Shown: positions 17,946-64,000 of the stretch, one piece after another
Layout of the letters: each line of letters opens with the position of its first letter
Position numbering within the stretch: position 1 is the stretch's first letter
Origin: Pegea sp. RAD2-039
Lineage: Eukaryota > Chordata > Thaliacea > Salpida > Salpidae
Assembly: GCA_034620365.1 (NCBI GenBank)
Contig: JAQGEQ010000298.1
Coordinates: 55,045 to 119,044 of the forward strand
Length of the DNA: 64,000 nucleotides
Direction of reading: 5' to 3'
Position numbers and translations under genes: made by a program
The notes under the pieces: generated by a model
Told to the model about the DNA's origin: nothing
Databases searched by the model: none
What the model saw: the letters and a program-made list of their open reading frames with translations, nothing else

Positions 17946-17963
17946 AATTTCAAAAAGAAATAA

Positions 17964-29700: not shown

Positions 29701-29704
29701 ATTA

Positions 29705-32525: not shown

Positions 32526-33959
32526 TTAACAAGTATTAAAATAGTCAGATTCTCCAGGATAAACTTCGATGTATAACTTGTATAGCTTCCTCCATAATTG
32601 CTGATCTCGCTTCCAAATATTTTGTACATATGTTTCATCTAAAATCATTAATACACTTTTAGTAAACAATTGATAATAAGTAGAAACTATTTCAAAAATA
32701 ATACTCGTCAATTACCAATGTAATCATGGTCGATGCAATGACAGATTTGACATCCACTGTAGGAGATGTAACAACATTTTTCTGATGATTCACAACTGAT
32801 GCCATCATCATTATCACATTTAGGAAGTTTAAAATCACTATCTTCAGGACTAAAAAATTTGTTATATAAAATAAAAAAGTTAAAAATTTGAAAAAAAGTT
32901 TGTAAATTTACATTTTGTCTGCAAGTTCTTTTAAAAACACTTCCAACATATTAACTCTCCAACTAAAATAATCACAAGACCATGCTCGGCGACGTCCACA
33001 TTTAGATGAATCATCATAAAATCTTGAACAATTGAAGTCAACTGTTCTATCTTTACTAAGAGCTGGACATTCTTAAAAACATATTAGAATGAAATTAACT
33101 TGTCTTTAAACAATTAGATTGAAGGTAATACTTGAAGATGGTGAAGTATAAGTTGTTATTTCAGCTGTTGTTTCAACCACAGTTGTTGGTGGCTGAGTTG
33201 CTGGTAGCTGAGTTGTTGGTAGCTGAGTTGTTGGTGGCTGAATTATTGAAATATTATTACATAGATCTTCAGAACAGATGCTTTGTGAGCAAGCTGTTAT
33301 GTCTTCTGCTTCACAAAAGTACGGATCGCTGAAATCATCGTCTATCTTGACACAGTTTGCTACATAAGCTGTGTATGTTGCTGCAATTGAGATAAAAAAA
33401 TTACTTTTGATCACCAAACTTCTACTCACTAAACTAAATTCTAGAAATGAATAGTAAGTTTTTAAAACGCTTTTTAAAAAGTTATCAAACAGTAAATTTA
33501 GAATTAAAGTTTGTTTATTTTAAAATTTTTGAGACTAAATTGTTTGTTCTTACCAGAAAGAAATCTATATATTGTAAAGTAGCAAGATGTGGATTCAGGA
33601 CAGTCAGCTTCATCACTTTCAAGTAGAACTAATTTTTCTGTCTTATCTTCTATAAAACCACGATACACTACACATTTGATTCCATCTAAATTAAAGAATA
33701 TTTAGTTTGAAGTCGTTATTAAATATTCAGAATGTGTATTAATAAATGTTTAAAAGACTTCTATTATCAGTATTATTATACTATTTGTGAGAATATATTT
33801 TAGTAAGAGGTTCTCTTTTCAAGCATACTACTTTGTGTTTATTGTAAAGAAGAAACAAATTTTCAAATATTATTAATAATAAATTATTCGAATATTTTCA
33901 CCTGCAGTATTCACAGCATAAATCAAAACTGTTACCAAAGCTAATACTATAGACTTCAT
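32526..33959 (-). CDS. Secreted Ly-6-like/Cys-rich protein, intact copy
   Basis: Exons on the minus strand are 33,959-33,902, 33,685-33,554, 33,380-33,132, 33,071-32,912, 32,849-32,716 and 32,638-32,526. They total 846 bp, 281 aa, with all junctions GT-AG and in phase. The protein starts with a hydrophobic signal peptide (MKSIVLALVTVLIYAV). Residues about 20-100 form an eight-Cys domain ending CSEDLCNN, the hallmark of Ly-6/uPAR three-finger folds. A short Thr/Pro/Gln linker with four PTTQ-type units follows. The C-terminal half is a second Cys-rich domain (KCPALSKD, KCGRRRAWSC, EKCCYISYSGCQICHC) that I do not recognise. No transmembrane segment or clear GPI signal is visible, so it is probably secreted. 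The function is unknown. Confidence 0.85.
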
Positions 33960-34960
33960 TTCTGTTAAATCCTGCAAAATCTTTTAAATGTTTAAGTTGA
34001 AGTCTTTCAAAATAAAGTTTAAAATCAAGTCCCACCAATAAGACTATCTAAAATCAAAAGAAATTGAAGTACTTTTAGCTACTTTCTTTTTACAACAATG
34101 ATTAGACTATGCTTACTTTTAATAGTGAAATTATTTTTTTGCTTTTTTATTATTCTGCTTTGTAATATTAAAAAAAAGAGTTTTTTAATAAAGGTAAAAT
34201 AGAACAAAAAATAGAATTTCTTTTGTTAGATCTTATTTCATGTAAGATCATAAAAACGTTTTTAATGGTTATGATCAATCTTACAAAGACTATTAAATAC
34301 TCCTGGAAGTTTCATGCTTCAAATATTTTAAGTAAATAAATATTCCATTCTACACTTTTTTGCTTTCCCAATAAACACAATTTCTTTATAGTTATCTTAA
34401 ATATAAGAAAGTGTTGAATTTTCATTGTTAAAATGTTATTCTGAATTCTACAAACGAAATTCTATATTTGAATTTTGCTTTTATCAAGCATGTAAAGAAT
34501 ATATTAAATTGTATATCTTAGTCTGGGAAGAAATGAAACTTTAATCATTATGAAAAGGATGAGGAACAAAAACTTCAATTGCAACCAGAATTTTGCGATG
34601 AATAACTATGATGCAAAATTTCACTATTTATTCAAAAATGTTGATTATTTATTAATAATTATTCAATCAATTAATTTTAATTAGTTTTTTATATATTGAT
34701 ACCAAAAATCACTTTATAAAAAAAGAGATTAACACGAGTAGCATTGCTTGTAGGCTTTTTAACATCAATCAATAAGTAACCTTAGAAGTCTGATATCTCT
34801 TTACTAAATTGAACTATTTTAACAATCGATTTTGTGCACGAATGATTCCTATTCATCTGTGAAAGTTTAACAAATGCTATTAATATCAAACTTCGGATAA
34901 AAAACGTTAAAAAGAGTTTATACAATCTGTTTTAAATTATATTTATAATAATATTAAAAA
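33960..34960. other. Upstream region of the intact Cys-rich gene
   Basis: This AT-rich non-coding DNA mirrors about 3,410-4,421. No promoter element is distinct against the AT-rich background. Confidence 0.4.
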
Positions 34961-34967
34961 AAGGAAA

Positions 34968-35045
34968 AATCACAGTTTAGAAATGGCAATGTTGGTAATA
35001 TTATAACAGTTCAACTTCTGCTTGAACAACGCGAGTGATTCTGAC
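34968..35045 (-). mobile_element. LINE 3' end relic, mirrored copy
   Basis: The minus strand encodes the same C-terminal peptide as 3,331-3,408 (FKQKLNCYNITNIAISKL, then a stop). It is the inverted-duplication counterpart of that fragment and of the 3' end of the LINE at 62.3 kb. Confidence 0.7.
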
Positions 35046-36117
35046 ATAAAACTATATATAATTAATAAAGAGTATATTAAATTGTGTATTTTAGTCTGGA
35101 AGGAAATGAGATTTTAATCCTTATAAAACAATGAAGAACAAAAACTTCGATTGTAACCACAAATGTATTAACGATTGATTTTGTGCATGAATAATTCCTG
35201 TTCATCTGTGAACAATGAATCATTGATAATCAATCATCAATTTTCAAAAAAAAAATGTTAAACGAATTTATAAAATGTGTTTTAAAATTATTCGACTTTT
35301 ATTAAATATAACATAAATTTCGGGAAATTCCTTCTACTAAATTAAAAGTCAATGTTCAGTTCATACAAGTTATTAAAGACTTACAAAATAAAACATTCCA
35401 GAGAAAAGTTTTTACTTTGATTCAATTTAAGAATATTAATATTTCTATAATATATAAGTTTATATAATTGGTATAACTATAATACGTGACTTATTTTCGG
35501 TTAAAAACTTCAAAGGTTAAGGAAATCAACTTTTGAAATTATAAACTATTTGTTGACAAATTTTGAACTTATTAAGCTCGAATAAATAAATTCATAAAAT
35601 AAAATTTCTAGATATAATTCACATACAAGGTTCAAGTGGTTCATTAAGATGCTAAAAAGCATTTGACAAATTACAAACCGATACTTTGAGTAATTTATAT
35701 CTTGCAAAGTTTGTATAAAAGTAGATACTGCTCCAAATAACTAAATAAATTATTTCTGCTTGTAGAGAATTATTTAAACATAGAAGATGCGTGGTTTCAA
35801 CCATAAATGTCAAAATGAAATGTTTTTCTTTAACATCAAGCTGAATAAATCTTTCTTTCTTATAATAAATTAACAACAGCAATTAAATCTCTCATATTTG
35901 AGGGTAATTAGCACGACATCCATCAACAATTTTTCAACTTAATATGATTTAGTGTAATCTTTTTATACTAGTTTGTAACAACTTATAACTTCTGATACAT
36001 TTGCTACATATAAACCTTCAGTAATAATTATTTTTCTTTTCAAAATGATGCCATATAACTAAACCAAGATTATTTTCATTAAACAATTGTCAACGAGTCT
36101 TTGCTTTGCATCAGCAT

Positions 36118-37430
36118 AGACTTAATCCCTTTTGTTATTAAAGCTCTAGACTTATTTGGTTTGTTTTTATTTCTTTGGGAGTATTTTAAAGTTAAAAGAA
36201 TTTATATTCATTTATTTTTATTCATTTGAAACCTTTAATGACATGCTGGTAACAGTGAAAATCTGTTTTAAGTAAAGTTTGTTTTCAAATGTGTTTTGAT
36301 ATGTTTTGCGAATTGAAAAATAATATAAATATTAGCAACTTTACTATCAAATCATAACAATATTTTGTACCATACAATTAGATGAAACCATTTACAATAA
36401 ATATTTAAACATCATTCTTACAACTAAATTTTTTCAACATTTTTAAAACTTTTAGAAATAGACATAAAACGGTAACTCTGAAAATACTATTTAAATGAAA
36501 GAGAATAAATATTTAACTATCTTTTTAATCTTCATTTTAGAGAGTTAATTGAAAATAAATCAGAATTTCAATGTAATATCATAAGTCATTATCAAATTAT
36601 AAGTTATAATTAAGTAAGATTTAAATTTAGATCAATTTAAATGATAAATTAGATTTATAAAACAGCAAAGACATTCATATTCATAGATTAAGAATGATCG
36701 AAGGTTCCTACTAAAGCAATTTAATACTTTTGAAAATCTTGAAAGAAATCGTCAAAATGAATTCTTTTTCAACAAAAATTCAAAATATTTTTTAAATATT
36801 AATTTCATTGCAATTTTTTCAACTAAAGACATTGATAAGAACTTGCTGAAAAATAAATTCTTGCCGTTAAATCAACCAATAATAATGAAATAATGAACCA
36901 ATTACATAAAAATCCAAAAGTTTTTATTTTTAAGATAATTACTTAAAAGAATGATTTTGATATTTTAGATACAGAAAATTTCTTTAAAGTGGTCTAAAGT
37001 TAATTAATTTATTTGTTCTGTTCAATACAATTATAAAATATGTGATAAATCTAGTAAATGATTATCTTTACATGTTTTGCTTCTGTGACTTCACTAGTTC
37101 TTATTCTAAATTGAATAAAATGTTTTTATAATAGAAACTATAACGAAGAAAATTGATTAATAAGTTACTAAATTTGAGACAAATTTAGTTTATTACCTTA
37201 TAAAGGAATTTAATTTTGTGATTGTTTTTTTCTTGAGAACAACTTTCTTCTAAGATATTTGTTTTTCAAGTAATAAACGTTAATTGATTGTAATGTTTAG
37301 AAGCATATTGTACGAAAGCCCCAAATTTTAAATTTAGAATATAAATAGAAAATTTAATAAAACTTTCAGAATACTTGAATTCAATTTGATCTTTTGTTAA
37401 ATTATTAAGATCTTTCTTTCATTTTTTGAC
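36118..37430. other. Gene-free AT-rich stretch
   Basis: This is unique sequence beyond the end of the duplication arm. I see no gene, RNA gene or repeat array. Confidence 0.5.
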
Positions 37431-45001: not shown

Positions 45002-48000
45002 ATGGATAAGCAACTAGACTTACTTAGTAAGTATTTTTCAATCTAACATTTTATTTTTAAACCTTGTAATAAATTACAAGTAATATTAATACTTTGTAGT
45101 TCATGAGTAAATGATATTATTTTGATATTAGATCATACTATGGAAGTTCACTTATATGAAGTGAATCACCTACATTTAAACGAAATCTTTTTTCAACTGG
45201 TTAGTCAATAAACTGGTTAACTTTATTAATATCACTTTTAAATAACTATTGTACAGTGGATAACAAGCTTGCTTTGTTTAAATTAATTACTTTTTTATGT
45301 TTCAGCCAAAATTAGTATTGTTTGAAATATCAATGTTTGGTAAGTTTACTTTAGTTTTAAATAGTTAGATTTTAAATTAAATGTCTTAATGTAACTGAAA
45401 AACAGTTTTTAAAACTACATTTTTATTTAAAGGTAATTTTGAACAAACGAAATTTAAAGGTTAGAGAATTAATTAATTGATTGTAACCTCATCTATTAAC
45501 ATATAAAAAATTTTAGGTACAATTCAACAAAACGTTTTTAACCTGCAACAGTGGAAATGTTTGTTGGTAAATTGATTTATTTCAATTATTATGTTAAAAA
45601 CACCAAATAATATATCAAATATTTACTTTTTCAAGTTTATTTAATTATATTTGATTCAATAATCCTATGAATAATTTCTTTTTTAATTTAAGATTCTGTT
45701 AAAAAGTAAAAATAACTTATGATTTTATTTTTAGTTGGAATACATGAAGCACCTAAGTAAGTGTAACAGACAAAATGTTTGTTCTAAAAATAATAAATTT
45801 AATCTGATTTTTCTGAAACTTGTTACTTTTTGGTCATAGTTTTGTAAATATTTTCAATTAAAACGTAGAATTTTAAGTCTTAATACAAAATTAAAAATAT
45901 TTTCAGCTGTTAACAAAGTTGTTGTTGGGGATATTGTTGAAAATGCTATAGACTTCAATACAGTGAGTTAAATAAACATTTTCTTTACTGATAACACTCG
46001 CTTGTCTTTTGTAGTAGTTTTATGACTGATTTGTAAATAAAATTTTAGCATTTTATCAGAAAGTATTTGATTCATCCTTATTCATACTTAATGCAAATTA
46101 ATAAATGATAACAGTTGACTGAATAAGTTATTAAAGTTTTTGTTTAACTCTATTTCTTATAGGAAACCTCATCAGTTGTTGAAGTTATTGAAGAAGAAAA
46201 CGAAATGGTAAATTTTAACCGTTGATATAAAATATGTACATTATAAAACTATTTGTTTATTTTTTTAACTATATAAAAGATTAATTATTTATCTTTAATA
46301 AAATAGTAATGGTCATATTGAAATTAAATCAGCTTAAAATCAAATATTTGTTGAGCTTTCAATACTTTTACAACAAAATAATTTAAGTAGAAGTAAAATA
46401 TGTAAACTGGGAAATATTTTTCAGCTGACTGATTTGGAAGATGGTGGTGATGATTTGAAACCTTCCAGCGTGAGTTTCTTTTTCTTCTAATTTCAGGGTG
46501 TCTTTGATTCTAATTAAAAACTCTTCATCCGTTTGTTAAATTGATTGTATTAATGTTTGTGAAACAAATTTAACTTCTTTTGCTGCTTCACTTGTATTTG
46601 TATAATTTGAGTAGCATTCGCTTTTATTTTATAAAATATTAATTATTCGAGCTTTTCATAGACTAAACAATTATAACAATTATACAGAGACACAAAATAT
46701 AAAACTCAAATACACTCAAATAAAATTCAACAAACGTATACAAAAACCAGTTTTCTAAAATTTTTTGGTTTTATAAAAACCAAACAATTATAAAGAGACA
46801 CAAAATATAAAACTCAAATAAAATATATCACAGTTATACAAAAAATCAGTTTTTTTTCTAGCTATGATGTGTTAACGAAAAACATATTTAAAGTTCTGCT
46901 TACTTTAAATTAAGGTTCAATGTCAGTCTTTTATTTACGGCGGTTTTCCGATTTTAGCATTAGTTTAAATTGTTTAAACTATTAGTTTTAAAGTTATGTT
47001 TAAGCTGCTAAAAAAATTTGAAACTGAAGGTTGTAGTTTAAAGTCAACAAGATTGTAATCAAATTAATTATTTTACAAAACAAAATTGTAATTTATTATT
47101 TTGATAAATGATAAAACTTGAAAATACTTTAATTAAGCCACTAACTTATTCCAAAAAAGTAGTAAAATATATTTGAGTAGTTTAAAAATGGTTTTCAATA
47201 CATATTTTCTTTAGTTATTAGAGTTACTCAAGGAATGTGACAGTGACAGCTCTTCAATTTCTTCATGGGTTAGTTTCTGTGATTAATTTATCATCACCCA
47301 TTTTGTTTATTAAATCTTATATGTACTTTTTGTTTCTAAGAACTTTTTTTCAAGTTATGATAACTGAATTAAATACTTGGTTTTTATACAATGATATCAA
47401 AATTTTGTTGCTACTTTCAAAAGATAAAACATAAAATTGTATTTTTTAGGAAACCGATTGCTCAGAAACCAACAATAATTTGGTGAATCCAGTTTTGGTA
47501 AATATTAATTTGATCGTAAACCTAATTTCTTTTATTTTAAATGTAAATTTGTCTTATTATAACTTACTGAAAATATTTATTTATGATTTTAGATTGAAAA
47601 CGATGAAATGAAAAGCAAAGTCATTTCGATAATTTCAGAACCGGATACAGTAAGTGAAAATTGATTATTTCTATTTGTTCTTTTGACCAAAACCAAAATT
47701 ATTGTAAATTTTAATTATAAAATGTATTTAGAGTTAGCTATTAAGGATATAAAGACAAGTTACTGATGTAATTTTTCATTAAATTTATTTATAATATAGA
47801 AGATAATCTTATAGAAACTGATTTGATTGCTTTAAGACAAAGAGTAAACCATTTTAGCTTCTTTTCAAGAACTTACTAGATTGTCATTATCATACTACAG
47901 ATTATTTAATATTTCATTCATTAATAGTTTAGAAATAAAAAATTTATGATTTAACTTCAATTCATTTTTAATTTAATTAAAATAATTTTCATTTTTATTA

Positions 48001-51000
48001 ACATTTGATATAAAATAGAATATAATTTAAAATTTAATTACTTGTACCTCTGTTTCTATTTCATTTGCTGTTTTTTTTATATTAAAATACAAACAGACTA
48101 ATTTTTCTTTCATTGTTTTCAGGACCAAAGCATAGGTGATAATAGCAATATTCAAAATGTTGAAAGCAAACCAGTTAGTTTTGATTTAATATTGATATTA
48201 CAATGGTTTTACTTCACAAGTTTTTTTTTGATTTAAATATAAATTCTCTGTAAAATTACTGCAAAAAATTAAAGTAATAGATTTGTTATAACTACTTTAG
48301 AAATCGTTTAAAAATTACTTCTTCAAAATAAAATTAATATTATTTTTGCTCTCAACTTTATTTAAATTTCAATCATTTTTTTCAGGATCAAAATATCCCA
48401 TATGAAGAACCTAAGAATATAAATGTTGAAAGCAAACCGGTAAGTTTGGTTATTTGGTTTTTGTTTATCAGATATAAATGACTAACTTTTGAGAAATTAT
48501 TGATAACAAGTTAATGTTTATATAAGAATGAGTCTTCTCAATTATAAATTTAAGTTGTTCAATGCAGGAAACGACTTTCGAGATTTTCAAGAGAAATTTT
48601 TTGAGAATAAGAGCTGTAAGTAAAAACTTATACGTGATTTTGAATATAACGTAAAAAATTTAAAACAATTAATTTCTATCTCTCCATAAACTTTTAAAAT
48701 CTCTGAATTTCATTTTAATGAATTTAAATTCTTTTTTATAGTCAATAATTACGTTACTAAAGTAAAATTAACTATTCTCCATAGACAAAATTAAATCTTA
48801 TAACTTGAAAAATGATAAACTTGAAAATACCTTATTCAAACCATTAACTTATTACAGAAAAGTAGTAAAGTAAATTTGAACAATTTTCATATAGTTTTTA
48901 ACAAATTCTTTCTTTAGGAACAAAAAGCTAAAAAGGAAAGTCAAAGTGACAGGAGTTCAATCTCCTCATTGGTTAGTTTCTGTGATTAATTTATCATCAG
49001 TCATTTTGTTTATAAATTCTGATGTATAGTTTTTGTTAGTCACAACTTTGGTTCAAGTTATATAAATTAGATTAAATAATTGTTGTTTTCATGAATTGAT
49101 CAAATATGTTTTTCTTTTTGCTAATTTATAAGAAAAATAACTCTAAAAAAATATGTGTAAGTTAACACTAATACCTGATGTTAAATAGAACATAAAAATG
49201 TAAAGCAATTAATTTCTAGCTTTCAATAAAATTTATTACCTCTGAATTTTGTTTTAATAAATTTAAAAACATTTTTTTAGTCATGAATTATGTTAAATAA
49301 AGTCAAATTAACTACTTTACAAAAACAAAATTAAATCTTATAACTTGAAAAATGATAAACATAAAAATACTTTATTGAAACAACTAACTTATTACAGAAA
49401 ATTAGTAAAATAAATTTGAATAATTTTCATTTAGTTTTTAAGAAATATTTTCTTTAGGAATCAAATTCTAGCAAGAAAAGTCAAAGTGACATCTGGTCAA
49501 TCTCGTCATTGGTTAGTTTCTGTGATTAATTTATTATCAGTCATTTTGCTTATTAATTCTTAAAAAGGGTTTTTTTAGTTATAACTATATTTCAGGTTAA
49601 ATAAATTTAACTAGATAATAGTTGTTTCCTTGAAAACATCAAATAAGTTGTTTTTGTTATTTTCAAATAATAAAAGATAAACTTGTCTTTTTTAGAAAGC
49701 TGATAGCGAAGAAACCAGCAATAATTTGGTGAATCCAGGTTTGGTAAGTACTAATTTGATCCTAAACCTAATTTCCTTTATCTTAAATATAAATTCGCCT
49801 TATTAAAACTTACTGAAAATATTTATTTATGATTTTAGATTGAAAACGATAAAATGAGAAGCAAAATCACTTCGATAATTTCAGAACCGGATACAGTAAG
49901 TGAAAATTGATTATTTCTTTTTGTTCTTTTGACCAAAACCAAGATTATTGTAAATTTTAATAATAAAATTTATTTAGAGTTAGCTATTAAGGATATAAAT
50001 ACAAGTTACTGATGTAATTTTTCATTAAATTTATTTATAATATAGAAGATAATCTTATAGAAACTGGTTTAATAGCTTTTAGACAAAGAGTAAAACCAAT
50101 TTAGTTTCGTTTCAAAAACTTACTAGATTGTCATTATCATACAATAGAATATTTAATATTTCATTCAATTAATTGTTTCAAAATAATTTGTTGATTTTAA
50201 ACTTTTTGATGTAGCTTCAGTTTGTTGTTAATTTAATCAAGCTAATTTTCATTTTCCTTTAAAGTTTTGACATAAAAGAAAACATAACGTAATAATTATT
50301 TGTTTGTATCTCTGTTGCAGATTTATTTGCTGTTTGTACTATATTAAAATTATAACTGATTAATTATTATTTTATTTTTTGCAGAAACATGGTATAGATG
50401 ATAATAACAATATTCAAAATGTTGAAAGCAAACCAGTTAGTTGTGATTTAGTGTTGATATTATAATATTTTTACTTCACAAGTTTTTTCTGATTTAAATA
50501 TTAACTCTCTGTAAATTTCTTGTAAAAAAATTAAACTAATAAAATTATTGTCACTACATTAGACAACTTTTATAAATTACGACTTCAACATAAAATCAAT
50601 CTTATTTTTTCTCTCAATTTCATTTAAATGTTAATTTTTTTTTCAGGATCAAAATATCCCAGATGAAAAACCTAAGAATATTGTTATTGAAAGCAAACCG
50701 GTAAGTTTCGTTATTTAGCTTTTCTTTGTAAGTTACATAAATGAATCTTTATAATTATTATTGACAAGTTATTGTTTGCATCAAAATTTGATGCTTCTCA
50801 TAAATTGTAAATTTAAGTTGTTCAATGCAAGAAAACGTATTTGAAACTTATAAAAAGATAACTCGAAAAAGTTATCTGTAAATTAACACTATTACATTAT
50901 GTTAAATATAACGTACAAAGTTTACAGTAATTAATTTCTACCTCTCTATAAACGATTAATTTCTCTGATTTTAGTTTTAATGGAGTTTAAATCATTCTTT

Positions 51001-52680
51001 CAGTCATGAATTAAGTTAAATAAAATCAAATTAACTACCTTACAAAGACAAAATTAAATCGTATAACATTAAAAAGAAAAAAAAACTAGAAAACACCTTT
51101 TTAAAACCACTAACGATTTTCATAATAGTAGTAAAATAAATTTGAACAGTTTTCTTACAGTTTTTAACAAATATTTTCTTTAGAAATCAAATGCTATCAA
51201 GAAATGTGACAGTGACAAATGTTCAATATCCTCATTGGTTAGTTTCTGTGATTATTTTATCATCAGTCATTTTGTTTATTAATTATTGTATATAGTTTTT
51301 GTTAGTCATAATTTTACTTCAAGTTATATAAATTTAATTAAATAATAGTTGTTTTCATGAGAAAAATGAACAATTTTTTAACATTTACAACTTTCAAAAG
51401 ATAAAAGATAACGTTTTTTTGTAGAAAACCGATTGCAGAGAAACCAGCAATAATTTGGTGAATCCAGTTTTGGTAAATAATAATTTGATCTTAAACCTAA
51501 TTTATTTTGTTTTAAATTTAATTTTGCCTTCTTAAAACTTACTTCGAATATTTGTTTTGATTTTAGATTGAAAACGATGAAATAAAAAGCAAAGTCACTT
51601 CGATAATTTCAGAACCTGATACAGTTAGTGAAAATGATTGTTTCTATTTGTTGTTCTATTTAAAAATATTTCTTCCTGTTTTTATAAACAGGTTTAATAT
51701 AAAAAAATTATTAATGAAAATTTAGTTATTTGTACTATATTAAAAGTAAAGTTGATTAATTAATTCTTTATTTTTTCAGAAACAAAGCATAGTTGATAAT
51801 AGCAATATTCAAAATGTTGAAAGCAAACCAGTTAGTTGTGATTTAATGTTGATATTATAATGGTTTTATTTGAAAAGTTTTTTTCTGATTTAAATAATAA
51901 TTCTATTCAATATTTCTGTGAAAACATTACACTAATAAAATTATTGTCACTACTTTAGACAACTTTTTTAAACTACAACTTGAATATAGAATTGATATTA
52001 TTTTTTCAGTCAACTTCATTTGAACCTTAATTTTTTTATTCAGGATCAAAATATCCCAGATGAAGAACCTAAGAATATAAATGTCCAAAACAAACCGGTA
52101 AGTTTGGTTTCGTTTATCAGTTACATATATGATTTTTTATAATTATTATTAATAAGTTAATGTTTATAGTGAAAATGATTTTTCTTAAATTAAATTGTAA
52201 AATTAAGTTGTTCAATGCAGAAAAACAAGGTTGAAACTGGGAAAAAAGATGCCATCAAAAAATTATCTGTAAGTTAATTCCTGATGCTAAATATTAATTA
52301 AAGAATATTGAAGCAATTAGGTTCTATTTAACAAAATTTTAATTTCTCTGAATTTTATTTTATTAAAATAAGAATCTTTAGTTCTATAAAATGAATCAAG
52401 TAAAATATTAAATTTAAAAAACAATTTGCAGAAGAAGAAGAGATTTAGAAACCTTTTGATTCGAGTTTTTACTTGTGGATGCGTAAGAAAATGTAAACTG
52501 AAAGTTTATCTTTTATATGATTTACTTATTTTATTTCTTATTTATTTGAAAACCTAGCTTTTGTGTTATAATTTACCAATATAAAAAACATTCTATAATC
52601 TATTTGCTTTTATCATTTAATTTTAATTGAAAATAAAACTTTTGTTTATTTATTTTATTTTTCATTTTCAGAAGCTGTAG
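45002..52680 (+). CDS. Micro-exon gene (29 exons of 9-68 bp), complete copy
   Basis: Starting at the ATG at 45,002, 29 short exons splice in frame to a TAG at 52,680: 1,374 bp, 457 aa, no stop. Exons 1-7 have mixed phases (45,002-45,026; 45,132-45,199; 45,306-45,339; 45,433-45,459; 45,517-45,566; 45,735-45,756; 45,907-45,962). All later exons are multiples of three and begin and end in phase 0: 46,163; 46,425; 47,215; 47,450; 47,593; 48,123; 48,386; 48,568; 48,918; 49,458; 49,696; 49,839; 50,385; 50,647; 51,184; 51,425; 51,567; 51,780; 52,044; 52,221; 52,432 and 52,672 (starts). A six-exon cassette of 54, 48, 57, 51, 54 and 48 bp is repeated three times (SDxxSISSL, ETxNNLVNPVL, IENDEMKSKV, DNSNIQNVESKP, DQNIPDEEPK). 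The protein is Ser/Asn/Glu-rich and probably disordered. I see no signal peptide. AATAAA is at 52,865. It resembles schistosome micro-exon genes in design, not sequence. The function is unknown. Confidence 0.75.
46655..46860. repeat. Imperfect tandem duplication in an intron
   Basis: Two neighbouring copies share gagacacaaaatataaaactcaaat, followed by an a/c-rich stretch and tatacaaaaa-ccagtttt or tatacaaaaaatcagttttt. They lie in the long intron between exons 9 and 10 of the micro-exon gene. This is a simple local duplication about 110 bp apart. Confidence 0.6.
50829..50878 (+). pseudogene. Decayed micro-exon in cassette 2
   Basis: This is the sixth exon of the second cassette, by position and similarity to 52,221-52,268 (AAAC, then ttgaaact, ending aaattatct). 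The acceptor gcag has become gcaag, the length is no longer a multiple of three, and the old frame meets TAA. It is excluded from the gene model because the gene reads correctly without it. The mirrored copy near 59,275-59,325 has the same lesion, so it predates the palindrome. Confidence 0.6.
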
Positions 52681-53492
52681 TTTAATGATGGAACTGAATT
52701 GGAAATATGTTTCCTACATCTGCTGATAAACAAATTTCATTTATTTTGAGAAGTTTTGACGAGTTAAATGCTGACGTAAATGTGACAATATTCATTCTTG
52801 TACCGTTTACATTCGACTATAAACACTATTCAAATCTTAAACATTATTTGTCGAAGCGTATCAGAATAAACAAAAATCTTTCTTAGACTTTTCTTGGTTT
52901 TTGTTTTTGGTTTCAAAAGTATACAAAATTTTCATCAGATATTTTGTAATATAACTTTTCCTCAGATTCTAGATAACTCTGACAGCTCTCAAAGTATTTA
53001 TAGATGTTACATAATTAACGAATAATTAATTAATAATTAATGAGTGCAATCAATGTTCTCATCTTTTCAATCTAACGTAAACTTGTTTATAAAACTTGTA
53101 AAGGTTTTCTTTAAAGAATTGACTTTTCAGCTAATGACACAATCAGGTCGCTGGATTCATTTATTTTTGATTTCTAAATAAATACAAACTCTACTTAATA
53201 TTACTAATGTATCAAAAAACTACGATCAGATAAACTTCTAGTATTTGATTCAAGTATTTGAAGAAAATTCCAGCTTTTATGTCTATCCCTGTCAGAGTAC
53301 TTACCTTCTTGTCTAAGAGGAACTTGTATTAATATTTATGTATTACTAAAAAACAAGTTTTATGAATTTAGAATTTGTATCTAAAATTGTAAAAATGTCT
53401 ATAAGAATGTATTTATTATAGAAAGTTAAAAACTGTTTTTAATTTTACTAAAAAAATTGACAAATGAATAAATTGTAAGTTGCCAAAATAAA
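52681..53492. other. 3' flank of the micro-exon gene
   Basis: This non-coding stretch includes AATAAA at 52,865-52,870 as the likely polyadenylation signal. It is mirrored at 56,656-57,467. No other gene is seen before the tRNA. Confidence 0.55.
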
Positions 53493-53564
53493 CTCCCCGT
53501 CGGGGAATCGAACCCCGGTCTCCCGCGTGACAGGCGGGGATACTCACCACTATACTAACGAGGA
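53493..53564 (-). tRNA. tRNA-Asp (GTC), intact copy
   Basis: On the minus strand the 72-nt sequence runs from TCCTCGTTAG to GACGGGGAG. The acceptor stem TCCTCGT pairs with ACGGGGA, with one T-G wobble. The anticodon loop is CTGTCAC with anticodon GTC, and the T arm contains GGTTCGATTCC. The internal A box (TAGTATAGTGG) and B box (GGTTCGATTCC) are complete. A TTTT run follows within 12 bases as a Pol III terminator. The mirrored copy at 56,585-56,655 is damaged. Confidence 0.95.
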
Positions 53565-53773
53565 CACAGAATTTTTTCATTAATTATTTCATTTATATAA
53601 GCAATGATAGAAACTTTGTAATTTTTTCATTATGAAAGTAAACGTTTATTCAATAAAATTTTAAAAATTCTTATGGAACTTAATTTCAATTTAATAGAAT
53701 TTTATATTTAGAGCAGCTTAACGTTTGAAAATGTTTGCTTAATATAAAATTACTCGAAAAAGTCAAATTAAAG

Positions 53774-56500: not shown

Positions 56501-56501
56501 T

Positions 56502-56575
56502 GGCCGGTTAGCTCAGTTGGTTAGACCGTCGTGCTAATAACGCGAATGTCGCGGGTTTGATCCCCGTACTGGCCA
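56502..56575 (+). tRNA. tRNA-Ile (AAT)
   Basis: The 74-nt sequence runs from GGCCGGTTAG to ACTGGCCA. The acceptor stem GGCCGGT pairs with ACTGGCC, with one G-T. The anticodon stem is TCGTG/CGCGA around loop CTAATAA, anticodon AAT. Two deviations stand out: the D stem GCTC faces GACC (one mismatch), and the T loop reads TTTGATC where TTCGATC is nearly universal, so C56 is T. The gene may be weak or a pseudogene. It is followed 9 bp later by a tRNA-Asp copy. Confidence 0.8.
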
Positions 56576-56584
56576 TGTTCGGTA

Positions 56585-56655
56585 TCCTCGTTAGTATAGT
56601 GGTGAGTATCCCCGCCTGTCACGCGGGAGACCGGGGTTCGATTCCCCGACGGGAG
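56585..56655 (+). pseudogene. tRNA-Asp (GTC), copy with acceptor-stem deletion
   Basis: This mirrors the tRNA-Asp at 53,493 and is identical through the anticodon and T arm. The 3' end reads GACGGGAG, one G shorter than GACGGGGAG, which shortens and unsettles the acceptor stem. The downstream TTTT terminator is also changed to TTTA (gtttatttagg). It is probably non-functional or poorly processed. Confidence 0.75.
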
Positions 56656-57467
56656 TTTATTTAGGCAACTTACAATTTATTCATTTGTCAATTTTTTTAG
56701 TAAAATTAAAAACAGTTTTTAACTTTTTATAATATTCTCATTTTTATAGACATTTTTACAAATTTAGATAAAAATTATAAATTCATAAAACTTGTTTTTT
56801 AGTAATACATAAATATTAATACAAGTTCTTCGTAGACAAGAAGGTAAGTACTCTGACAGGGATAGACATAAAAGCTGGAATTTTCTTCAAATACTTGAAT
56901 CAAATACTAGAAGTTTATCTGATCGTAGTTTTATGATACATTAGTAATATTAAGTAGAGTTTGTATTTATTTAGATATCAAAAATAAATGAATCCAGCGA
57001 CCTGATTGTGTCATTGGCTGAAAAGTCACTTCTTTAAAGAAAACCTTTACAAGTTTTATAAACAAGTTCACGTTAGATTGAAAAGATGAGAACATTGATT
57101 GCACTCATTAAATATTAATTAATTATTCGTTAATTATGTAACATCTATAAATACTTTGAGAGCTGTCAGAGTTATCTAGAATCTGAGGAAACGTTAAATT
57201 ATAAAATATCTGATGAAATTTTTAAATACCGTTGAAACCAAAGACAGAAACCAAGAAAAGTCTAAGAAAGATTTTTGTTTATTCTGATACGCTTCGACAA
57301 ATAATGTTTAAGATTTTAATAGTGTTTACAATCAAATGTAAACGGTACAAGAATGACTATTATCACATTTACGTCCGCAATTAACTCGACAAAACTTCTC
57401 AAAATAAATGAAATTTGTTTATCAGCAGATGTAGGAAACATATTTCCAATTCAGTTCCATCATTAAA
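56656..57467. other. 3' flank of the right micro-exon gene copy
   Basis: This non-coding stretch mirrors 52,681-53,492. The polyadenylation signal (tttatt on this strand) is at 57,278-57,283. Nothing else is seen. Confidence 0.55.
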
Positions 57468-60400
57468 CTACAGCTTCTGAAAATGAAAAATAAAATAAAT
57501 AAACAAAAGTTTTATTTTCAATTAAAATTAAATGATAAAAGCAAATAGATTATAGAATGTTTTTTATATTGGTAAATTATAACACAAAAGCTAGGTTTTC
57601 AAATAAATAAGAAATAAAATAAGTAAATCAAATAAAAGATAAACTTTCAGTTTACATTTTCTTACGCATCCACAAGTAAAAAGTCGAATCAAAAGGTTTC
57701 TAAATCTCTTCTTCTTCTGCAAATTGTTTTTTAAATTTAATATTTTACTTAATTCATTTTATAGAACTAAAGATTCTTATCTTAATAAAATAAAATTCAG
57801 AGAAAGTAAAATTTTGTTAAATAGAAATTAATTGCTTCAATATTCTTTAATTAATATTTAGCATCAGGAATTAACTTACAGATAATTTTTTGATGGCATC
57901 TTTTTTCCCAGTTTCAACCTTGTTTTTCTGCATTGAACAACTTAATTTTACAATTTAATTTAAGAAAAATCATTTTCACTATAAACATTAACTTATTAAT
58001 AATAATTATAAAAAATCATATATGTAACTGATAAACGAAACCAAACTTACCGGTTTGTTTTGGACATTTATATTCTTAGGTTCTTCATCTGGGATATTTT
58101 GATCCTGAATAAAAAAATTAAGGTTCAAATGAAGTTGACTGAAAAAATAATATCAATTCTATATTCAAGTTGTAGTTTAAAAAAGTTGTCTAAAGTAGTG
58201 ACAATAATTTTATTAGTGTAATGTTTTCACAGAAATATTGAATAGAATTATTATTTAAATCAGAAAAAAACTTTTCAAATAAAACCATTATAATATCAAC
58301 ATTAAATCACAACTAACTGGTTTGCTTTCAACATTTTGAATATTGCTATTATCAACTATGCTTTGTTTCTGAAAAAGATAAAGAACTTATTAATCAAATT
58401 TACTTTTAATATAGTACAAATAACTAAATTTTCATTAATAATTTTTTTATATTAAACCTGTTTAAAAAAACAGGAAAATATATTTTTAAATAGAACAACA
58501 AATAGAAACAATCATTTTCACTAACTGTATTAGGTTCTGAAATTATCGAAGTTGCTTTGCTTTTTATTTCATCGTTTTCAATCTAAAATCAAAACAAATA
58601 TTCGAAGTAAGTTTTAAGAAGGCAAAATTAAATTTAAAACAAAATAAATTAGGTTTAAGATCAAATTATTATTTACCAAAACTGGATTCACCAAATTATT
58701 GCTGGTTTCTCTGCAATCGGTTTTCTACAAAAAAACGTTATCTTTTATCTTTTGAAAGTTGTAAATGTTAAAAAATTGTTCATTTTTCTCATGAAAACAA
58801 CTATTATTTAATTAAATTTATATAACTTGAAGTAAAATTATGACTAACAAAAACTATATACAATAATTAATAAACAAAATGACTGATGATAAAATAATCA
58901 CAGAAACTAACCAATGAGGATATTGAACATTTGTCACTGTCACATTTCTTGATAGCATTTGATTTCTAAAGAAAATATTTGTTAAAAACTGTAAGAAAAC
59001 TGTTCAAATTTATTTTACTACTATTATGAAAATTGTTAGTGGTTTTAAAAAGGTGTTTTCTAGTTTTTTTTTCTTTTTAATGTTATACGATTTAATTTTG
59101 TTTTTGTAAGCTAGTTAATTTGATTTTATTTAACTTAATTCATGACTAAAAGAATAATTTAAACTCCATTAAAACTAAAATCAGAGAAATTAATCGTTTA
59201 TAGAGAGGTAGAAATTAATTACTGTAAACTTTGTACGTTATATTTAACATAATGTAATAGTGTTAATTTACAGATAACTTTTTCGAGTTATCTTTTTATA
59301 AGTTTCAAATACGTTTTCTTGCATTGAACAACTTAAATTTACAATTTATGAGAAGCATCAAATTTTGATGCAAACAATAACTTGTCAATAATAATTATAA
59401 AGATTCATTTATGTAACTTACAAAGAAAAGCTAAATAACGAAACTTACCGGTTTGCTTTCAATAACAATATTCTTAGGTTTTTCATCTGGGATATTTTGA
59501 TCCTGAAAAAAAAATTAACATTTAAATGAAATTGAGAGAAAAAATAAGATTGATTTTATGTTGAAGTCGTAATTTATAAAAGTTGTCTAATGTAGTGACA
59601 ATAATTTTATTAGTTTAATTTTTTTACAAGAAATTTACAGAGAGTTAATATTTAAATCAGAAAAAACTTGTAAAGTAAAAATATTATAATATCAACACTA
59701 AATCACAACTAACTAGTTTGCTTTCAACATTTTGAATATTGTTATTATCATCTATACCATGTTTCTGCAAAAAATAAAATAATAATTAATCAGTTATAAT
59801 TTTAATATAGTACAAACAGCAAATAAATCTGCAACAGAGATACAAACAAATAATTATTACGTTATGTTTTCTTTTATGTCAAAACTTTAAAGGAAAATGA
59901 AAATTAGCTTGATTAAATTAACAACAAACTGAAGCTAAATCAAAAAGTTTAAAATCAATAAATTATTTTGAAACAATTAATTGAATGAAATATTAAATAT
60001 TCTATTGTATGATAATGACAATCTAGTAAGTTTTTGAAACGAAACTAAATTGGTTTTACTCTTTGTCTAAAAGCTATTAAACCAGTTTCTATAAGATTAT
60101 CTTCTATATTATAAATAAATTTAATGAAAAATTACATCAGTAACTTGTATTTATATCCTTAATAGCTAACTCTAAATAAATTTTATTATTAAAATTTACA
60201 ATAATCTTGGTTTTGGTCAAAAGAACAAAAAGAAATAATCAATTTTCACTTACTGTATCCGGTTCTGAAATTATCGAAGTGATTTTGCTTCTCATTTTAT
60301 CGTTTTCAATCTAAAATCATAAATAAATATTTTCAGTAAGTTTTAATAACGCAAATTTATCTTTAAAATAAAAGAAATTAGGTTTAGGATCAAATTAGTA

Positions 60401-62026
60401 CTTACTAAAACTGGATTCACCAAATTATTGCTGGTTTCTTCGCTATCGGCTTTCTAAAAAAGACAAGTTTTTCTTTTATTATTTGAAAATAGCAAAAACA
60501 ACTTATTTGATGTTTTCATGGAAACAACTATTATCTAGTTAAATTTATTTAACCTGAAATATAGTTATAACTAAAAAAACCCTTTTTAAGAATTAATAAG
60601 CAAAATGACTGATAATAAATTAATCACAGAAACTAACCAATGAGGAGATTGACCAGATGTCACTTTGACTTTTCTTGCTAGAATTTGATTCCTAAAGATA
60701 ATATTTCTTAAAAACTAAATGAAAATTATTCAAATTTATTTTACTAATTTTCTGTAATAAGTTAGTTGTTTCAATAAAGTATTTTTATGTTTATCATTTT
60801 TCAAGTTATAAGATTTAATTTTGTTTTTGTAAAGTAGTTAATTTGATTTTATTTAACTTAATTCATGACTAAAAAAATGTTTTTAAATTTATTAAAACAA
60901 AATTCAGAGATAATAAATTTTATTGAGAGTTAGAAATTAATTGCTTTACATTTTTATGTTCTATTTAACATCAGGTATTAGTGTTAACTTACACATATTT
61001 TTTTAGAGTTATTTTTCTTATAAATTAGCAAAAAGACCAAAATATTTGATCGTTTCATGAAAACAACAATTATTTAATCTAATTTATATAACTTGAACCA
61101 AAGTTATGACTAACAAAAACTATACAGCAGAATTTATAAACAAAATGACTGATGATAAATTAATCACAGAAACTAACCAATGAGGAGATTGAACTCCTGT
61201 CACTTTGACTTTCCTTTTTAGCTTTTTGTTCCTAAAGAAAGAATTTGTTAAAAACTATATAAAAATTATTCAAATTTATTTTACTAATTTTCTGTAATAA
61301 GTTAATGGTTTGAATAAGGTATTTTCAAGTTTATCATTTTTCAAGTTATAAGATTTAATTTTCTCTATGTAAAATAGTTCATTTTACTTTATTTAACGTA
61401 ATTCATGACTATATAAAAGAATTTAAATTCATTAAAATGAAATTCAGAGATTTTAAAAGTTTATGGAGAGATAGAAATTAATTGTTTTAAATTTTTTACG
61501 TTATATTCAAAATCACGTATAAGTTTTTACTTACAGCTCTTATTCTCAAAAAATTTCTCTTGAAAATCTCGAAAGCCGTTTCCTGCATTGAACAACTTAA
61601 ATTTATAATTGAGAAGACTCATTTTTATATAAACATTAACTTGTTATCAATAATTTCTCAAATGTTACAAATTTGTATCTGATAAACAAAAACCAAATAA
61701 CCAAACTTACCGGTTTTCTTTCAACATTTATATTCTTAGGTTCTTCATATGGGATAATTTGATCCTGAAAAAAATGGTTGAAATTTAAATAAAGTTGAGA
61801 GCAAAAATAATATTAATTTTATTTTGAAGAAGTAATTTATAAAACATTTCTAAAGTAGTTATAACAAATTATTTACTTTAATTTTTTTCAGTAATTTTAC
61901 AGAGAATTTATCTTTAAATAAAAAAAAACTTGTGAAGTAAAACCATTGTAATATCAATATTAAATCAAAACTAACTGGTTTGCTTTCAACATTTTGAATA
62001 TTGCTATTATCACCTATGCTTTGTTC
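57468..62026 (-). CDS. Micro-exon gene, right-arm copy (exons 13-29)
   Basis: Minus-strand exons mirror exons 13-29 of the left gene: 62,026-61,976, 61,764-61,711, 61,582-61,535, 61,231-61,178, 60,691-60,638, 60,453-60,406, 60,310-60,254, 59,764-59,714, 59,502-59,449, 58,965-58,912, 58,724-58,677, 58,582-58,526, 58,368-58,318, 58,104-58,051, 57,927-57,880, 57,716-57,666 and 57,476-57,468. Every exon keeps its length, phase 0 and GT/AG sites, with no stops. Amino-acid differences are few (for example SKL for SKP, SEPNT for SEPDT). Exons 1-12 are not in the window. The LINE at 62,269 sits in the intron between exons 12 and 13, so the 5' part may lie beyond 64,000 and the gene could still be whole. 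Confidence 0.7.
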
Positions 62027-62268
62027 CTGAAAACAATGAAATAAAAATTAATATGTTTTTATTTTGATATAGTACAGACAGCAAATAAAATAGAAACATA
62101 GGTACAAGCAATTAAATTTTAACTTATATTCTATTTTATATCAAATTTTATATCAAATATTAATAAAAATGAAAATTAGTTTAATTAAATTAAAAATGAA
62201 TTGAAGTTAAATCATAAATTTTTTATTTCTTAGCTATTAATGAATGAAATATTAAATAATCTGTAGTA

Positions 62269-64000
62269 TTTATTTATTTATTTATTACAATAAATGTGAA
62301 GGAGGGTGCCTAAAAAGAGCACCTCTCGCTAACACACATTCTCACAAATTAGATCTATTTGACGTGTAAACGAAAAAGCATATGACAATGAAGAACTGCA
62401 CAGAATCATAGTATTGTAAAAGAGAAAAATTCACAGTTTAGAAATGGCAATGTTGGCGATATTATAACAATTCAGCTTTTTCTTGAACAGCATAAGTGAT
62501 TTTGACATGACAATCTCTGATGGCAGATTGTTCCATGTACTGATTATGCGGTATGAGAAAAAACTTAATCTGGTTAACGTAGCTGGTGGAGTGGGCTTAT
62601 TAAGATGTAATTTATGTCTTCTAAGTTGATATAACTTGAGGGAGGGACTAATGGAGAAAAAGTCATCAAACTGAAGATCAATTAGGTTGTGAATAATTTT
62701 AAAAATCAGAATAAGGTCGTATTTGATTCTTCGGATTTCCAAAGAATCTAGATTGAAGAAGCTGAGACGATGGTTATAACTCCCGTATTTGATATTAAGT
62801 TTCCTGCAAACCAATCTCGTAAATGTTGCCTGAACAGATTCGATTTTTCTGATATCACCAACTTGATATGGCATCCATGCACTGATATTGTATTCAAGAA
62901 TAGGGCGTATGTACAGTTTGAAAAGGTTGACGAAAAACCATGGATCTTTAGAATTAAAAGTCTTTATGATGAGGTGGACAAGCTTGATAGATTTTCCAAA
63001 GATTCTGGAAACATAACTGTGCCATTTGAAGTCAGATGTCAGAGTAATGCCGAGGTCTATGACTGAGGATACTCGTTCAAGAATGGATCCATTGATGTAG
63101 TATTGGTTGCTGAAGTTGGCCGCTGGCTTACGGGAGAATGTTATAACTTCAGACTTTGTTGGCTGGATTTTAAGTTGCCAATTCGCAGACCAGTTTTCTA
63201 CAATGTTTAGTGCAGTTTGGAGTTTTGAGTGAGAACCAGATAATAGCTTGATGTCATCTGCATACACAAACACACTGACATTGTCTACTGTTATTAGTCT
63301 TCTGATGAGGTCTTCAATGAAAATCAAAAAGAGAAGTGGACCCAGGACGGAACCTTGAGGAACGCTGCTGGTGACTTTACTAGGAGTAGATAAAGATCTT
63401 TCTACACGGGTTCGTTGGGTTCTACCTGATAAGAAATCTTCAATCCATTTTAAGATAGAGTTGCTGATTTTTATGTTTTTCAATACAGTAATGAGCTTGT
63501 TGTGTGGAACAGAATCAAACGCTTTAGCAAAATCAAGGTATATGATGTCACATGGAGTATTACTTCCGTAATGAGCTGTAAGCTCATTGAAAAACGTGAG
63601 ATGTTGAGTCAAAGAAGATCTTTGCTTAACAAAGCCATGCTGGGCATCAGATATTAGATGATGCTCCGTCAAATGGCTAGTTATATGGTTGTGAATGATA
63701 TGTTCTTGAGTTCTGCAGATAACCGAAGTCAGCGAAACTGGTCTGTAGTTAAGTGCAGTGTTTCTGGGACCTTTCTTATAAATTGGAGTAATAATAGCAT
63801 TCTTCCAAATTTGTGGAAGTCTTCCCCGCTTAAGAGTCATGTTAAAGAGTAGCGATAAGGGTAGCGCTAAAGAAGAAGTACTTTTTCTTAAAAACAAAGC
63901 TGGGATTTGATCTGGGGTGTTGGAAACTGTTGATTTTAGAGAAGAAATAGCCTTAGATACTATATCAGCTGTTATGTCTAGATCTACCATCTCAGAGATA
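62269..64000 (-). mobile_element. Non-LTR retrotransposon (LINE), 3' part
   Basis: The element lies on the minus strand. Its 3' end is a short (TAAA)n-type tail (tttatttatttattta on the plus strand at about 62,269-62,288), and its ORF runs off the window end. The left palindrome arm at about 47,893 shows the uninterrupted site, so the insertion point is known precisely. The target-site duplication cannot be checked because the 5' end is outside the window. Confidence 0.9.
62431..63990 (-). CDS. Reverse transcriptase of a jockey/CR1-like LINE, N-terminus cut
   Basis: A 519-codon open frame runs from near the window end to a stop at 62,431. RT blocks appear in order: TPDQIPALFLRK, NYRPVSLTSVICR, DAQHGFVKQRS, IIYLDFAKAFDSVPH (catalytic Asp), SSVPQGSVLGPLLFLIFI, FVYADDIKLL (YADD active site) and LKIQPTKSEVI. 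A C-terminal region, STWNNLPSEI to NIANIAISKL, follows. The endonuclease domain would lie upstream beyond 64,000, so the first Met is probably not the real start. The intact frame and catalytic residues suggest a recent insertion. The clade is uncertain: jockey, CR1 or related. Confidence 0.92.
   Translation of the reverse strand: MVDLDITADIVSKAISSLKSTVSNTPDQIPALFLRKSTSSLALPLSLLFNMTLKRGRLPQIWKNAIITPIYKKGPRNTALNYRPVSLTSVICRTQEHIIHNHITSHLTEHHLISDAQHGFVKQRSSLTQHLTFFNELTAHYGSNTPCDIIYLDFAKAFDSVPHNKLITVLKNIKISNSILKWIEDFLSGRTQRTRVERSLSTPSKVTSSVPQGSVLGPLLFLIFIEDLIRRLITVDNVSVFVYADDIKLLSGSHSKLQTALNIVENWSANWQLKIQPTKSEVITFSRKPAANFSNQYYINGSILERVSSVIDLGITLTSDFKWHSYVSRIFGKSIKLVHLIIKTFNSKDPWFFVNLFKLYIRPILEYNISAWMPYQVGDIRKIESVQATFTRLVCRKLNIKYGSYNHRLSFFNLDSLEIRRIKYDLILIFKIIHNLIDLQFDDFFSISPSLKLYQLRRHKLHLNKPTPPATLTRLSFFSYRIISTWNNLPSEIVMSKSLMLFKKKLNCYNIANIAISKL

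What the first reader, a model, noticed from the sequence alone, without database searches (positions are those of the whole stretch)
45002..52680. A 29-exon micro-exon gene with phase-0 symmetric exons
Exons of 9-68 bp, separated by introns of about 60-750 bp, chain from an ATG to a stop with no reading-frame break (1,374 bp, 457 aa). From exon 8 on, every exon is a multiple of three in phase 0, so any exon can be skipped without a frameshift. Schistosome micro-exon genes use this logic to make protein variants, but this protein has no visible signal peptide and its exons are longer than theirs. It could be a new family of combinatorial proteins.
Basis: partly seen in the sequence, partly recalled or inferred. 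Interest (0 to 1): 0.92.

Follow-up and report, generated by a model that had tools for sequence, protein, structure and literature searches.

The report
Micro-exon cassette gene family
An animal genome carries a family of unusual genes cut into about 20 to 30 tiny, interchangeable coding pieces, and the copies show pieces being lost and blocks being fused without breaking the protein, which makes the family a natural test case for how proteins evolve by swapping small parts.

Summary
It belongs to a multicopy family in a 105.7-Mb eukaryote assembly (at least 23 matches to exon 5; 27 gene-like and 13 fragment-like matches to exon G). Splice sites and frame persist in 14 aligned copies. Two uninterrupted JGI proteins from unnamed relatives align with the whole model and differ from each other by one exact 19-aa cassette plus three residues.

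The body is a repeated exon cassette A-B-C-D-E-(F). Two paralogs fused blocks 2 and 3 in frame at different breakpoints, and exon X3 is intact in some copies but has lost its acceptor here. Diversification by recombination and exon loss is thus shown at DNA level; alternative splicing is only suggested. The protein is an orphan without signal-peptide-like start, with acidic modular middle and basic C-terminus. It is built like schistosome MEGs and aphid bicycle genes but fails tested defining features of both. Function and taxon remain unidentified.

The parts
45002..45026 (+). exon 1 (N1), 25 bp, start codon
   Evidence: same N-terminus in P0001/P0002
45132..45199 (+). exon 2 (N2), 68 bp
   Evidence: residues present in P0001/P0002
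45306..45339 (+). exon 3 (N3), 34 bp
45433..45459 (+). exon 4 (N4), 27 bp
45517..45566 (+). exon 5 (N5), 50 bp, encodes most of the conserved NVFNLQQWKCLL stretch
45735..45756 (+). exon 6 (N6), 22 bp
45907..45962 (+). exon 7 (N7), 56 bp, last exon that changes phase
46163..46207 (+). exon 8 (N8), 45 bp, first of the phase-0 run
46425..46469 (+). exon 9 (N9), 45 bp
47215..47268 (+). exon 10, cassette type A, block 1, 54 bp
47450..47497 (+). exon 11, type B, block 1, 48 bp
47593..47649 (+). exon 12, type C, block 1, 57 bp
48123..48173 (+). exon 13, type D, block 1, 51 bp
48386..48439 (+). exon 14, type E, block 1, 54 bp
48568..48615 (+). exon 15, type F, block 1, 48 bp
48918..48971 (+). exon 16, extra type A, 54 bp
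49458..49511 (+). exon 17, type A, block 2, 54 bp
49696..49743 (+). exon 18, type B, block 2, 48 bp
49839..49895 (+). exon 19, type C, block 2, 57 bp
50385..50435 (+). exon 20, type D, block 2, 51 bp
50647..50700 (+). exon 21, type E, block 2, 54 bp
51184..51237 (+). exon 22, type A, block 3, 54 bp
51425..51472 (+). exon 23, type B, block 3, 48 bp
51567..51623 (+). exon 24, type C, block 3, 57 bp
51780..51830 (+). exon 25, type D, block 3, 51 bp
52044..52097 (+). exon 26, type E, block 3, 54 bp
52221..52268 (+). exon 27, type F, block 3, 48 bp
52432..52482 (+). exon 28 (G), 51 bp, basic C-terminal segment (KKKRFRNLLIRVFTCGC)
52672..52680 (+). exon 29 (H), 9 bp, stop codon
47784..47843 (+). relic of exon type X3 in block 1: frame still open, but the AG acceptor used in other copies is lost
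   Evidence: and the letters; live 60-bp X3 in 7 of 16 full-length models (L033, L039, L041, L043, L045, L047, L048), a 51-bp form in L049
50030..50089 (+). second X3 relic, block 2, acceptor lost in the same way
   Evidence: and the letters
50832..50877 (+). relic of an F exon after block 2 (46 bp, in-frame stop, read by eye)
57468..62026 (-). second family member in the window, exons D (block 1) to H; nothing upstream of that D was matched; a reverse-transcriptase ORF lies at 62431-63990 on the same strand and the contig ends at 64000
47892..53571 (+). arm of a 97.3% inverted repeat carrying most of the gene; partner arm 56578-62269
56578..62269 (-). partner arm of the inverted repeat

Best explanation
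A multicopy, apparently lineage-restricted protein-coding family whose genes consist of (i) a conserved 94-aa N-terminal region spread over seven exons of mixed phase, (ii) a repeated array of phase-0 symmetric micro-exons (A54 B48 C57 D51 E54 F48, plus X1-X3 in some copies) encoding a hydrophilic acidic tail built of 16-20-aa modules, and (iii) a constant basic C-terminal exon. Because every cassette exon is a multiple of three in phase 0 and its introns are alike between blocks, unequal crossing-over, exon duplication and loss of a splice site all change the module string without a frameshift. SHOWN: gene structure, family, in-frame block fusions with different breakpoints, live and dead exon states. 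INFERRED: that P0001/P0002 are spliced transcripts, and that modules can also be skipped in RNA. SPECULATIVE (about 25%): the product is an intracellular protein held at a membrane or in the nucleus by its basic C-terminus, the modular tail being a variable array of short motifs or phosphosites, with variation favoured by rapid evolution or conflict.
For: Exact 29-exon model. At least 23 genomic matches to exon 5, and 40 to exon G, of which 27 at 89-100% identity look gene-like; I read 20 of these 27, the seven on C171 not. Same kind of exon order in the copies fetched. Splice-site conservation and in-frame exon indels. dN/dS 0.29-0.59 against 12 close copies, Fisher p<0.05 in 8 of the 12 (uncorrected, all against the same window gene). 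JGI proteins P0001/P0002, E 1.6e-70 and 4.9e-65; P0001 can be cut by eye into the same module types, and the 19-aa difference between the two starts and ends at module borders. L045 and L039: block 2 joined to block 3, switch in exon B in L045 and between exon D and its following intron in L039, both reading through. X3 acceptor lost in the window, present in other copies. No Pfam family above its cut-off and no PDB match.
Against: No RNA from this species was available. P0001/P0002 carry no sample information and could be intronless copies rather than cDNA. Between the internal blocks dN/dS is 0.82-1.49, and 0.83-0.97 against the C26 subfamily, so parts may be near neutral. Between blocks, exons are 83-90% and introns 82-85% identical; for blocks 1 and 2 the exons are even slightly less alike than the introns (83.3 vs 84.5%). 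L033 carries a 1-nt exon deletion. The structure model of P0001 was uninformative (mean pLDDT 28), so neither domain nor disorder is shown.
Confidence: 0.8

Rival explanations
1. Combinatorial alternative splicing is the main source of variety: any cassette can be skipped, as proposed for schistosome MEGs.
For: 22 successive phase-0 exons; P0001 and P0002 differ by exactly one C-type cassette with both edges at module borders.
Against: P0001/P0002 also differ by three substitutions in the next two modules, so they may be alleles or paralogs. By eye, the donor sites of cassette exons do not look weaker than those of the other exons; no scoring was done. No isoform data for this species.
Confidence: 0.35
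2. Decaying or neutrally drifting repeat family: an ampliconic duplication whose copies are mostly pseudogenes carried along by segmental duplication.
For: Copies lie in inverted duplications; 13 of 40 G-exon matches lie on two contigs where the one place read (L053) holds only exons F and G in other DNA, with G's AG acceptor missing; dN/dS near 1 against C26 and between blocks; L033 frameshift; changed stop codons in L041 and L044 and no final exon found in L035, L038 and L046.
Against: 15 of 16 models from exon 1 to G are open, with the modulo-3 caveat given above; the six scored exon indels are multiples of three; dN/dS below 1 between close copies; full-length relatives in JGI data.
Confidence: 0.12
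3. Spurious chain: AT-rich DNA let a reader thread a long open path through GT/AG dinucleotides.
For: Mean of 1.38 open frames per exon, so a single exon taken alone proves little; my own first chain was wrong at exons 2 and 3 although open throughout.
Against: P0001/P0002 independently support the corrected chain including exons 2 and 3; paralog conservation.
Confidence: 0.02
4. The N-terminal region is a diverged F-box, making the family substrate adaptors with a variable tail.
For: The stretch LPKLVLFEIS resembles the first helix of F-boxes; hhalign aligned 12 columns at 42% identity.
Against: 18 of 200 column-shuffled controls scored as high or higher; hhalign probability 0.64%; no F-box hit in Pfam.
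Confidence: 0.05

Closest known systems
Schistosome micro-exon genes (MEGs)
   Same: Many short symmetric exons separated by longer introns; about 80% of the coding region in short symmetric exons (PMC5825161, passages read; 81% in symmetric exons here); multigene family; variation by adding or dropping modules.
   Different: MEG symmetric exons are given as 6-36 bp (PMC5825161), or 6-81 bp and mostly 15 bp (PMC10526429, passages read); the cassette exons here are 48-57 bp. MEG proteins carry a signal peptide, here none is visible; the longest MEG protein is given as 189 residues against 457 aa. I did not compare MEG sequences directly.
Aphid bicycle genes
   Same: Large rapidly evolving family with many small internal exons nearly all of one phase (PMC9168663, passages read).
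   Different: Bicycle exons are phase 2, about 17 per gene on average, with N-terminal secretion signal and CYC motifs; here phase 0, no CYC string, no such start; the published classifier gives a logit of -106.7.
Collagen-type successive symmetric exons
   Same: [quoted passage not shown] That fibrillar collagen exons are often 54 bp in phase 0 is recalled.
   Different: No collagen family match; acidic Ser/Glu/Asn/Lys-rich tail instead of Gly-X-Y.
Titin PEVK region and tropoelastin (recalled, not tested)
   Same: Many short symmetric exons encoding flexible protein, with variable exon use.
   Different: Single structural genes of vertebrates; no sequence relation was sought.

Membership tests
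Schistosome MEG | Most of the CDS in short symmetric exons | tested here: met
   81% of the CDS in 22 symmetric internal exons
Schistosome MEG | Symmetric exons mostly 6-36 bp | tested here: not met
   5 of 29 exons are 36 bp or less; of the 22 symmetric internal exons one is 27 bp, the rest 45-57 bp
Schistosome MEG | N-terminal signal peptide, secreted product | tested here: not met
   Hydropathy only: best 11-residue mean starting at residues 1-20 is 0.45; no dedicated predictor was run
Schistosome MEG | Skipping isoforms in RNA | tested here: inconclusive
   P0001/P0002 differ by one cassette plus three residues
Schistosome MEG | Occurs in trematodes | tested here: inconclusive
   Organism unnamed; the marker searches did not identify it
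Bicycle genes | Internal exons in phase 2 | tested here: not met
   Internal exon start phases 0/1/2 = 23/4/0; published GLM logit -106.7 (coefficients, computed)
Bicycle genes | CYC motif | tested here: not met
   No C-Y-C string in the 457-aa product (sequence)
Bicycle genes | N-terminal secretion signal | tested here: not met
   Hydropathy only
Collagen | Collagen triple-helix repeat (Pfam) | tested here: not met
   No collagen family among the matches (E up to 0.1 and 10)
F-box proteins | F-box domain | tested here: not met
   No F-box family; hhalign was equalled or beaten by 18 of 200 shuffles

The most novel reading that the evidence does not exclude
An orphan animal gene family in which diversity is written into the genome by recombination between phase-0 exon cassettes, across some two dozen or more paralogs partly arranged as inverted pairs, and then read out further by exon skipping: a two-level (DNA and RNA) module-shuffling system for an intracellular protein, evolved independently of schistosome MEGs and aphid bicycle genes.
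Probability: 0.3. Interest if true: 0.82.

Novelty: new variant of a known kind. Interest (0 to 1): 0.64.

Why it matters
Micro-exon families with uniform phase are known to me mainly from parasites and plant-feeding insects, where they are tied to secretion and host contact. A family with the same architecture but no signal-peptide-like start would suggest that this design is a general solution for modular protein regions rather than a parasite trick. The paralogs also catch the process in the act: two block fusions with different breakpoints, an exon alive in some copies and silenced by acceptor loss in others, and subfamilies with extra exons. That makes the idea that phase symmetry protects a gene against recombination directly testable by comparing copies and haplotypes.

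Tried and rejected
Chance chain of splice dinucleotides: rejected. MEG and bicycle membership: rejected on tested features. F-box N-terminus: not supported. Known domain: nothing above a Pfam cut-off; with E up to 10 five sub-threshold families appeared, best the XH domain (E 0.034, in 3 of 5 members), which I take for chance. Solved structures: none at E up to 5. The structure model of P0001 with P0002 was of very low confidence (mean pLDDT 28.1), so no fold search was made. Gene conversion as a rule within inverted pairs: of six pairs the arms are unusually close in two (intron divergence 2.2% in the window, 1.3% in C159) but not in C272 (4.1%), C165 (4.2%), C90 (4.8%) or C70 (7.9%), against about 4-5% between most copies, so not general. 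C159b and C165a differ by only 0.4% and may be alleles, so counts are assembly counts.

Organism: not identified. The bdelloid spliced leader (recalled) is absent, as is the nematode SL1 (recalled) and a B. manjavacas guide target from PMC10395877 (passages; search); a B. plicatilis EF1-alpha primer from PMC11219915 (passages) had one match with 3 mismatches whose translated surroundings did not look like EF1-alpha. Nematode cuticle collagen and arthropod cuticle families were not found (the tool says this does not show absence), nor COX1. U3 RNA is present. The window's GC of about 27% and the assembly size fit monogonont rotifers (PMC11954553, section 6 read; these lack a spliced leader according to PMC1925144, passages) but other animals too.

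Print: that such a family is undescribed rests on searches 13 (micro-exon, gene family, rotifer: 0 papers), 54, 55, 86 and 87, of which I opened PMC10526429, PMC5825161, PMC9168663 and PMC4838654 (passages only); most subscription papers are not in that library. Protein databases: only P0001 and P0002 at E up to 1, among the 7,988 and 7,994 best candidates that searches scored (capped lists).
Full report
OBSERVATION. The window is part of contig C70 of a 105.7-Mb, 387-contig assembly, AT-rich throughout. Exons 8 to 29 are multiples of three in phase 0.

INDEPENDENT SUPPORT. A search of about 5.8 billion predicted proteins found two relatives, P0001 (369 aa, contig 1,230 bp, 39% identity over the whole query) and P0002 (350 aa, contig 1,173 bp, 32% over 69% of it), E 1.6e-70 and 4.9e-65, source JGI, unnamed. 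Their contigs are hardly longer than their reading frames, so they are most simply spliced transcripts; I could not read the contigs, and intronless genes are not excluded. P0001 can be cut by eye into the same module types as the exons (one C module is 16 aa instead of 19, the F module 14 instead of 16), and P0002 lacks one 19-residue C-type module exactly between a B and a D module, with three further substitutions in the two following modules. A second search with a five-sequence alignment found no others.

FAMILY. A 30-bp pattern from exon 12 matched 51 places with up to three mismatches. Exon 5 with flanks matched 23 places. Exon G matched 40 places, 40 of 47 candidates being scored: 27 at 89-100% identity on 11 contigs, and 13 at 86-87% on contigs C102 and C247. 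The one C247 place that I read (L053) holds only exons F and G, with G's AG acceptor missing, so I count those 13 as probable fragments; the other 12 were not read. Of the 27, I read 20; the seven on C171 I know only from the first halves of six genes. Twenty loci were fetched. One search modelled 28 sequences; 16 reach from exon 1 to exon G, and 15 of these 16 are open. The model builder accepted only exon lengths that agree modulo 3 with the query exon, and it missed exon N4 in L047. L033 has one A fewer in a run of A in exon 3. The final 9-bp exon was seen in 17 of 20 sequences examined; in L041 and L044 its stop codon is changed, and in L035, L038 and L046 it was not found within 420 bp. 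In the gene and 14 copies (six of the 20 fetched loci left out), GT or GC donors stand at 404 of 405 aligned sites and AG acceptors at 402 of 404. Six exon indels were scored, all multiples of three, while 305 of 357 intron indels are not (overhangs of my slices not counted, and the L033 deletion was missed by this count). Exon divergence from the window gene is 2.2-3.5% for ten full-length copies against 4.7-5.6% in introns, and 10.6-11.1% against 15.5-16.5% for the two C26 copies; the two block-deleted copies align less cleanly (2.8 and 6.1% against 6.0 and 8.9%).

CASSETTES. The window gene reads N1-N9, A B C D E F, A, A B C D E, A B C D E F, G, H. Between blocks, exons are 83-90% and introns 82-85% identical; for blocks 1 and 2 exons are slightly less alike than introns. 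dN/dS between blocks is 0.82-1.49, whereas the gene against its 12 close paralogs gives 0.29-0.59 (Fisher p<0.05 in 8 of 12, uncorrected and not independent) and against the C26 copies 0.83-0.97. So frame and length are kept while module sequences diverge rather freely. Paralogs differ in module string (N1 to G): 8 of the 16 full-length models, the window included, have the window's order; three more add exon X3 (L033, L041, L043); L039 and L045 have X3 and lack one block; the two C26 copies lack the first F and one A and have X3; L049 (C31) reads N1-N9, X1, X2, B, C, X3, B, D, E, F, G; the six C171 copies, known only in their first part, carry X1 and X2.

MECHANISM OF CHANGE. In L045, exon A and its intron match block 2, the intron after exon B and all that follows match block 3, and exon B lies between; in L039 everything up to exon D matches block 2 and the intron after D and what follows match block 3. 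These are two in-frame exchanges between homologous blocks with different breakpoints, each leaving one hybrid block and an open protein. Exon X3 is preceded by AAG in seven copies but by AAA in the window at both of its places (47784 and 50030), where its frame is still open: an exon lost by a splice-site change without harm to the frame. An F-exon relic with an in-frame stop lies at 50832. Phase-0 symmetry is what makes all of these tolerable. The run of phase 0 is partly explained by cassette duplication itself, so it is not a series of independent events.

PROTEIN. 457 aa, pI 4.9; N-terminal 94 aa of neutral hydropathy, 53 of 94 residues identical in P0001, with the conserved stretch NVFNLQQWKCLLLEYMK; acidic hydrophilic middle (pI 4.5, GRAVY -1.0, Ser 15%, Glu 11%, Asn 11%, Lys 11%); basic C-terminus (pI 11.2). 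No hydrophobic start by hydropathy. No Pfam family above its cut-off and no PDB relative. A two-sequence AlphaFold2 model was of no use (mean pLDDT 28; helices drawn at 33-75 and 350-367 with pLDDT under 50 nearly throughout). An F-box resemblance at LPKLVLFEIS did not beat shuffled controls. Membrane or nuclear targeting by the basic tail is speculation.

SETTING. The gene's larger part lies in a 97.3% inverted repeat (47892-53571 with 56578-62269) whose other arm holds a second, minus-strand member. Inverted pairs recur on C90, C159, C165, C272 and elsewhere on C70. The two arms are closer than other copies in two of six pairs only. Some loci may be alleles, so gene number is uncertain.

VERDICT. 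A real, multicopy, orphan micro-exon family. It works like schistosome MEGs and bicycle genes in architecture, and is a member of neither by the tested features. Shuffling at DNA level is shown; shuffling at RNA level, product localisation, function and host taxon are open.

Noticed in passing
2240-13487 and 26495-36142: A second pair of inverted repeats in the same window, in pieces about 95% identical; together with the gene's own inverted repeat this makes the contig look ampliconic.
   Followed up: partly
313-924, 13847-14458, 21447-22058: Three open frames that read as C2H2 zinc fingers (by eye, not scanned), in DNA copies about 94% identical; a PR/SET-like fragment at 17715-17966 (-) gave a sub-threshold Pfam match.
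   Followed up: no
11900, 19502 (+) and 28079 (-): Three copies of a short homeodomain-like frame; the copy at 19502 scored just below the Pfam homeobox cut-offs, the others were not scanned.
   Followed up: no
5133-6958: About 121 copies of a 15-bp repeat, open in several frames, one reading a Thr/Pro/Gln-rich mucin-like protein.
   Followed up: no
62431-63990: Reverse-transcriptase ORF (RVT_1) on the minus strand upstream of the truncated second family member; described only.
   Followed up: no
L053 and 12 further matches on C102 and C247: The one place read (L053) holds only exons F and G of the family; the other 12 G-exon matches have the same identity (86-87%), as if a mobile or duplicated element had picked up the 3' end.
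   Followed up: partly
53493-53564 and 56584-56657: tRNA-Asp genes at the inner ends of the two inverted repeat arms, one in each arm, with a tRNA-Ile just outside at 56501-56576.
   Followed up: no
25629-26500: PROPPIN-type beta-propeller gene with unnamed ENA relatives at 92, 79 and 64% identity, against 39% for the micro-exon protein's best relative; whether these come from the same species is unknown.
   Followed up: partly
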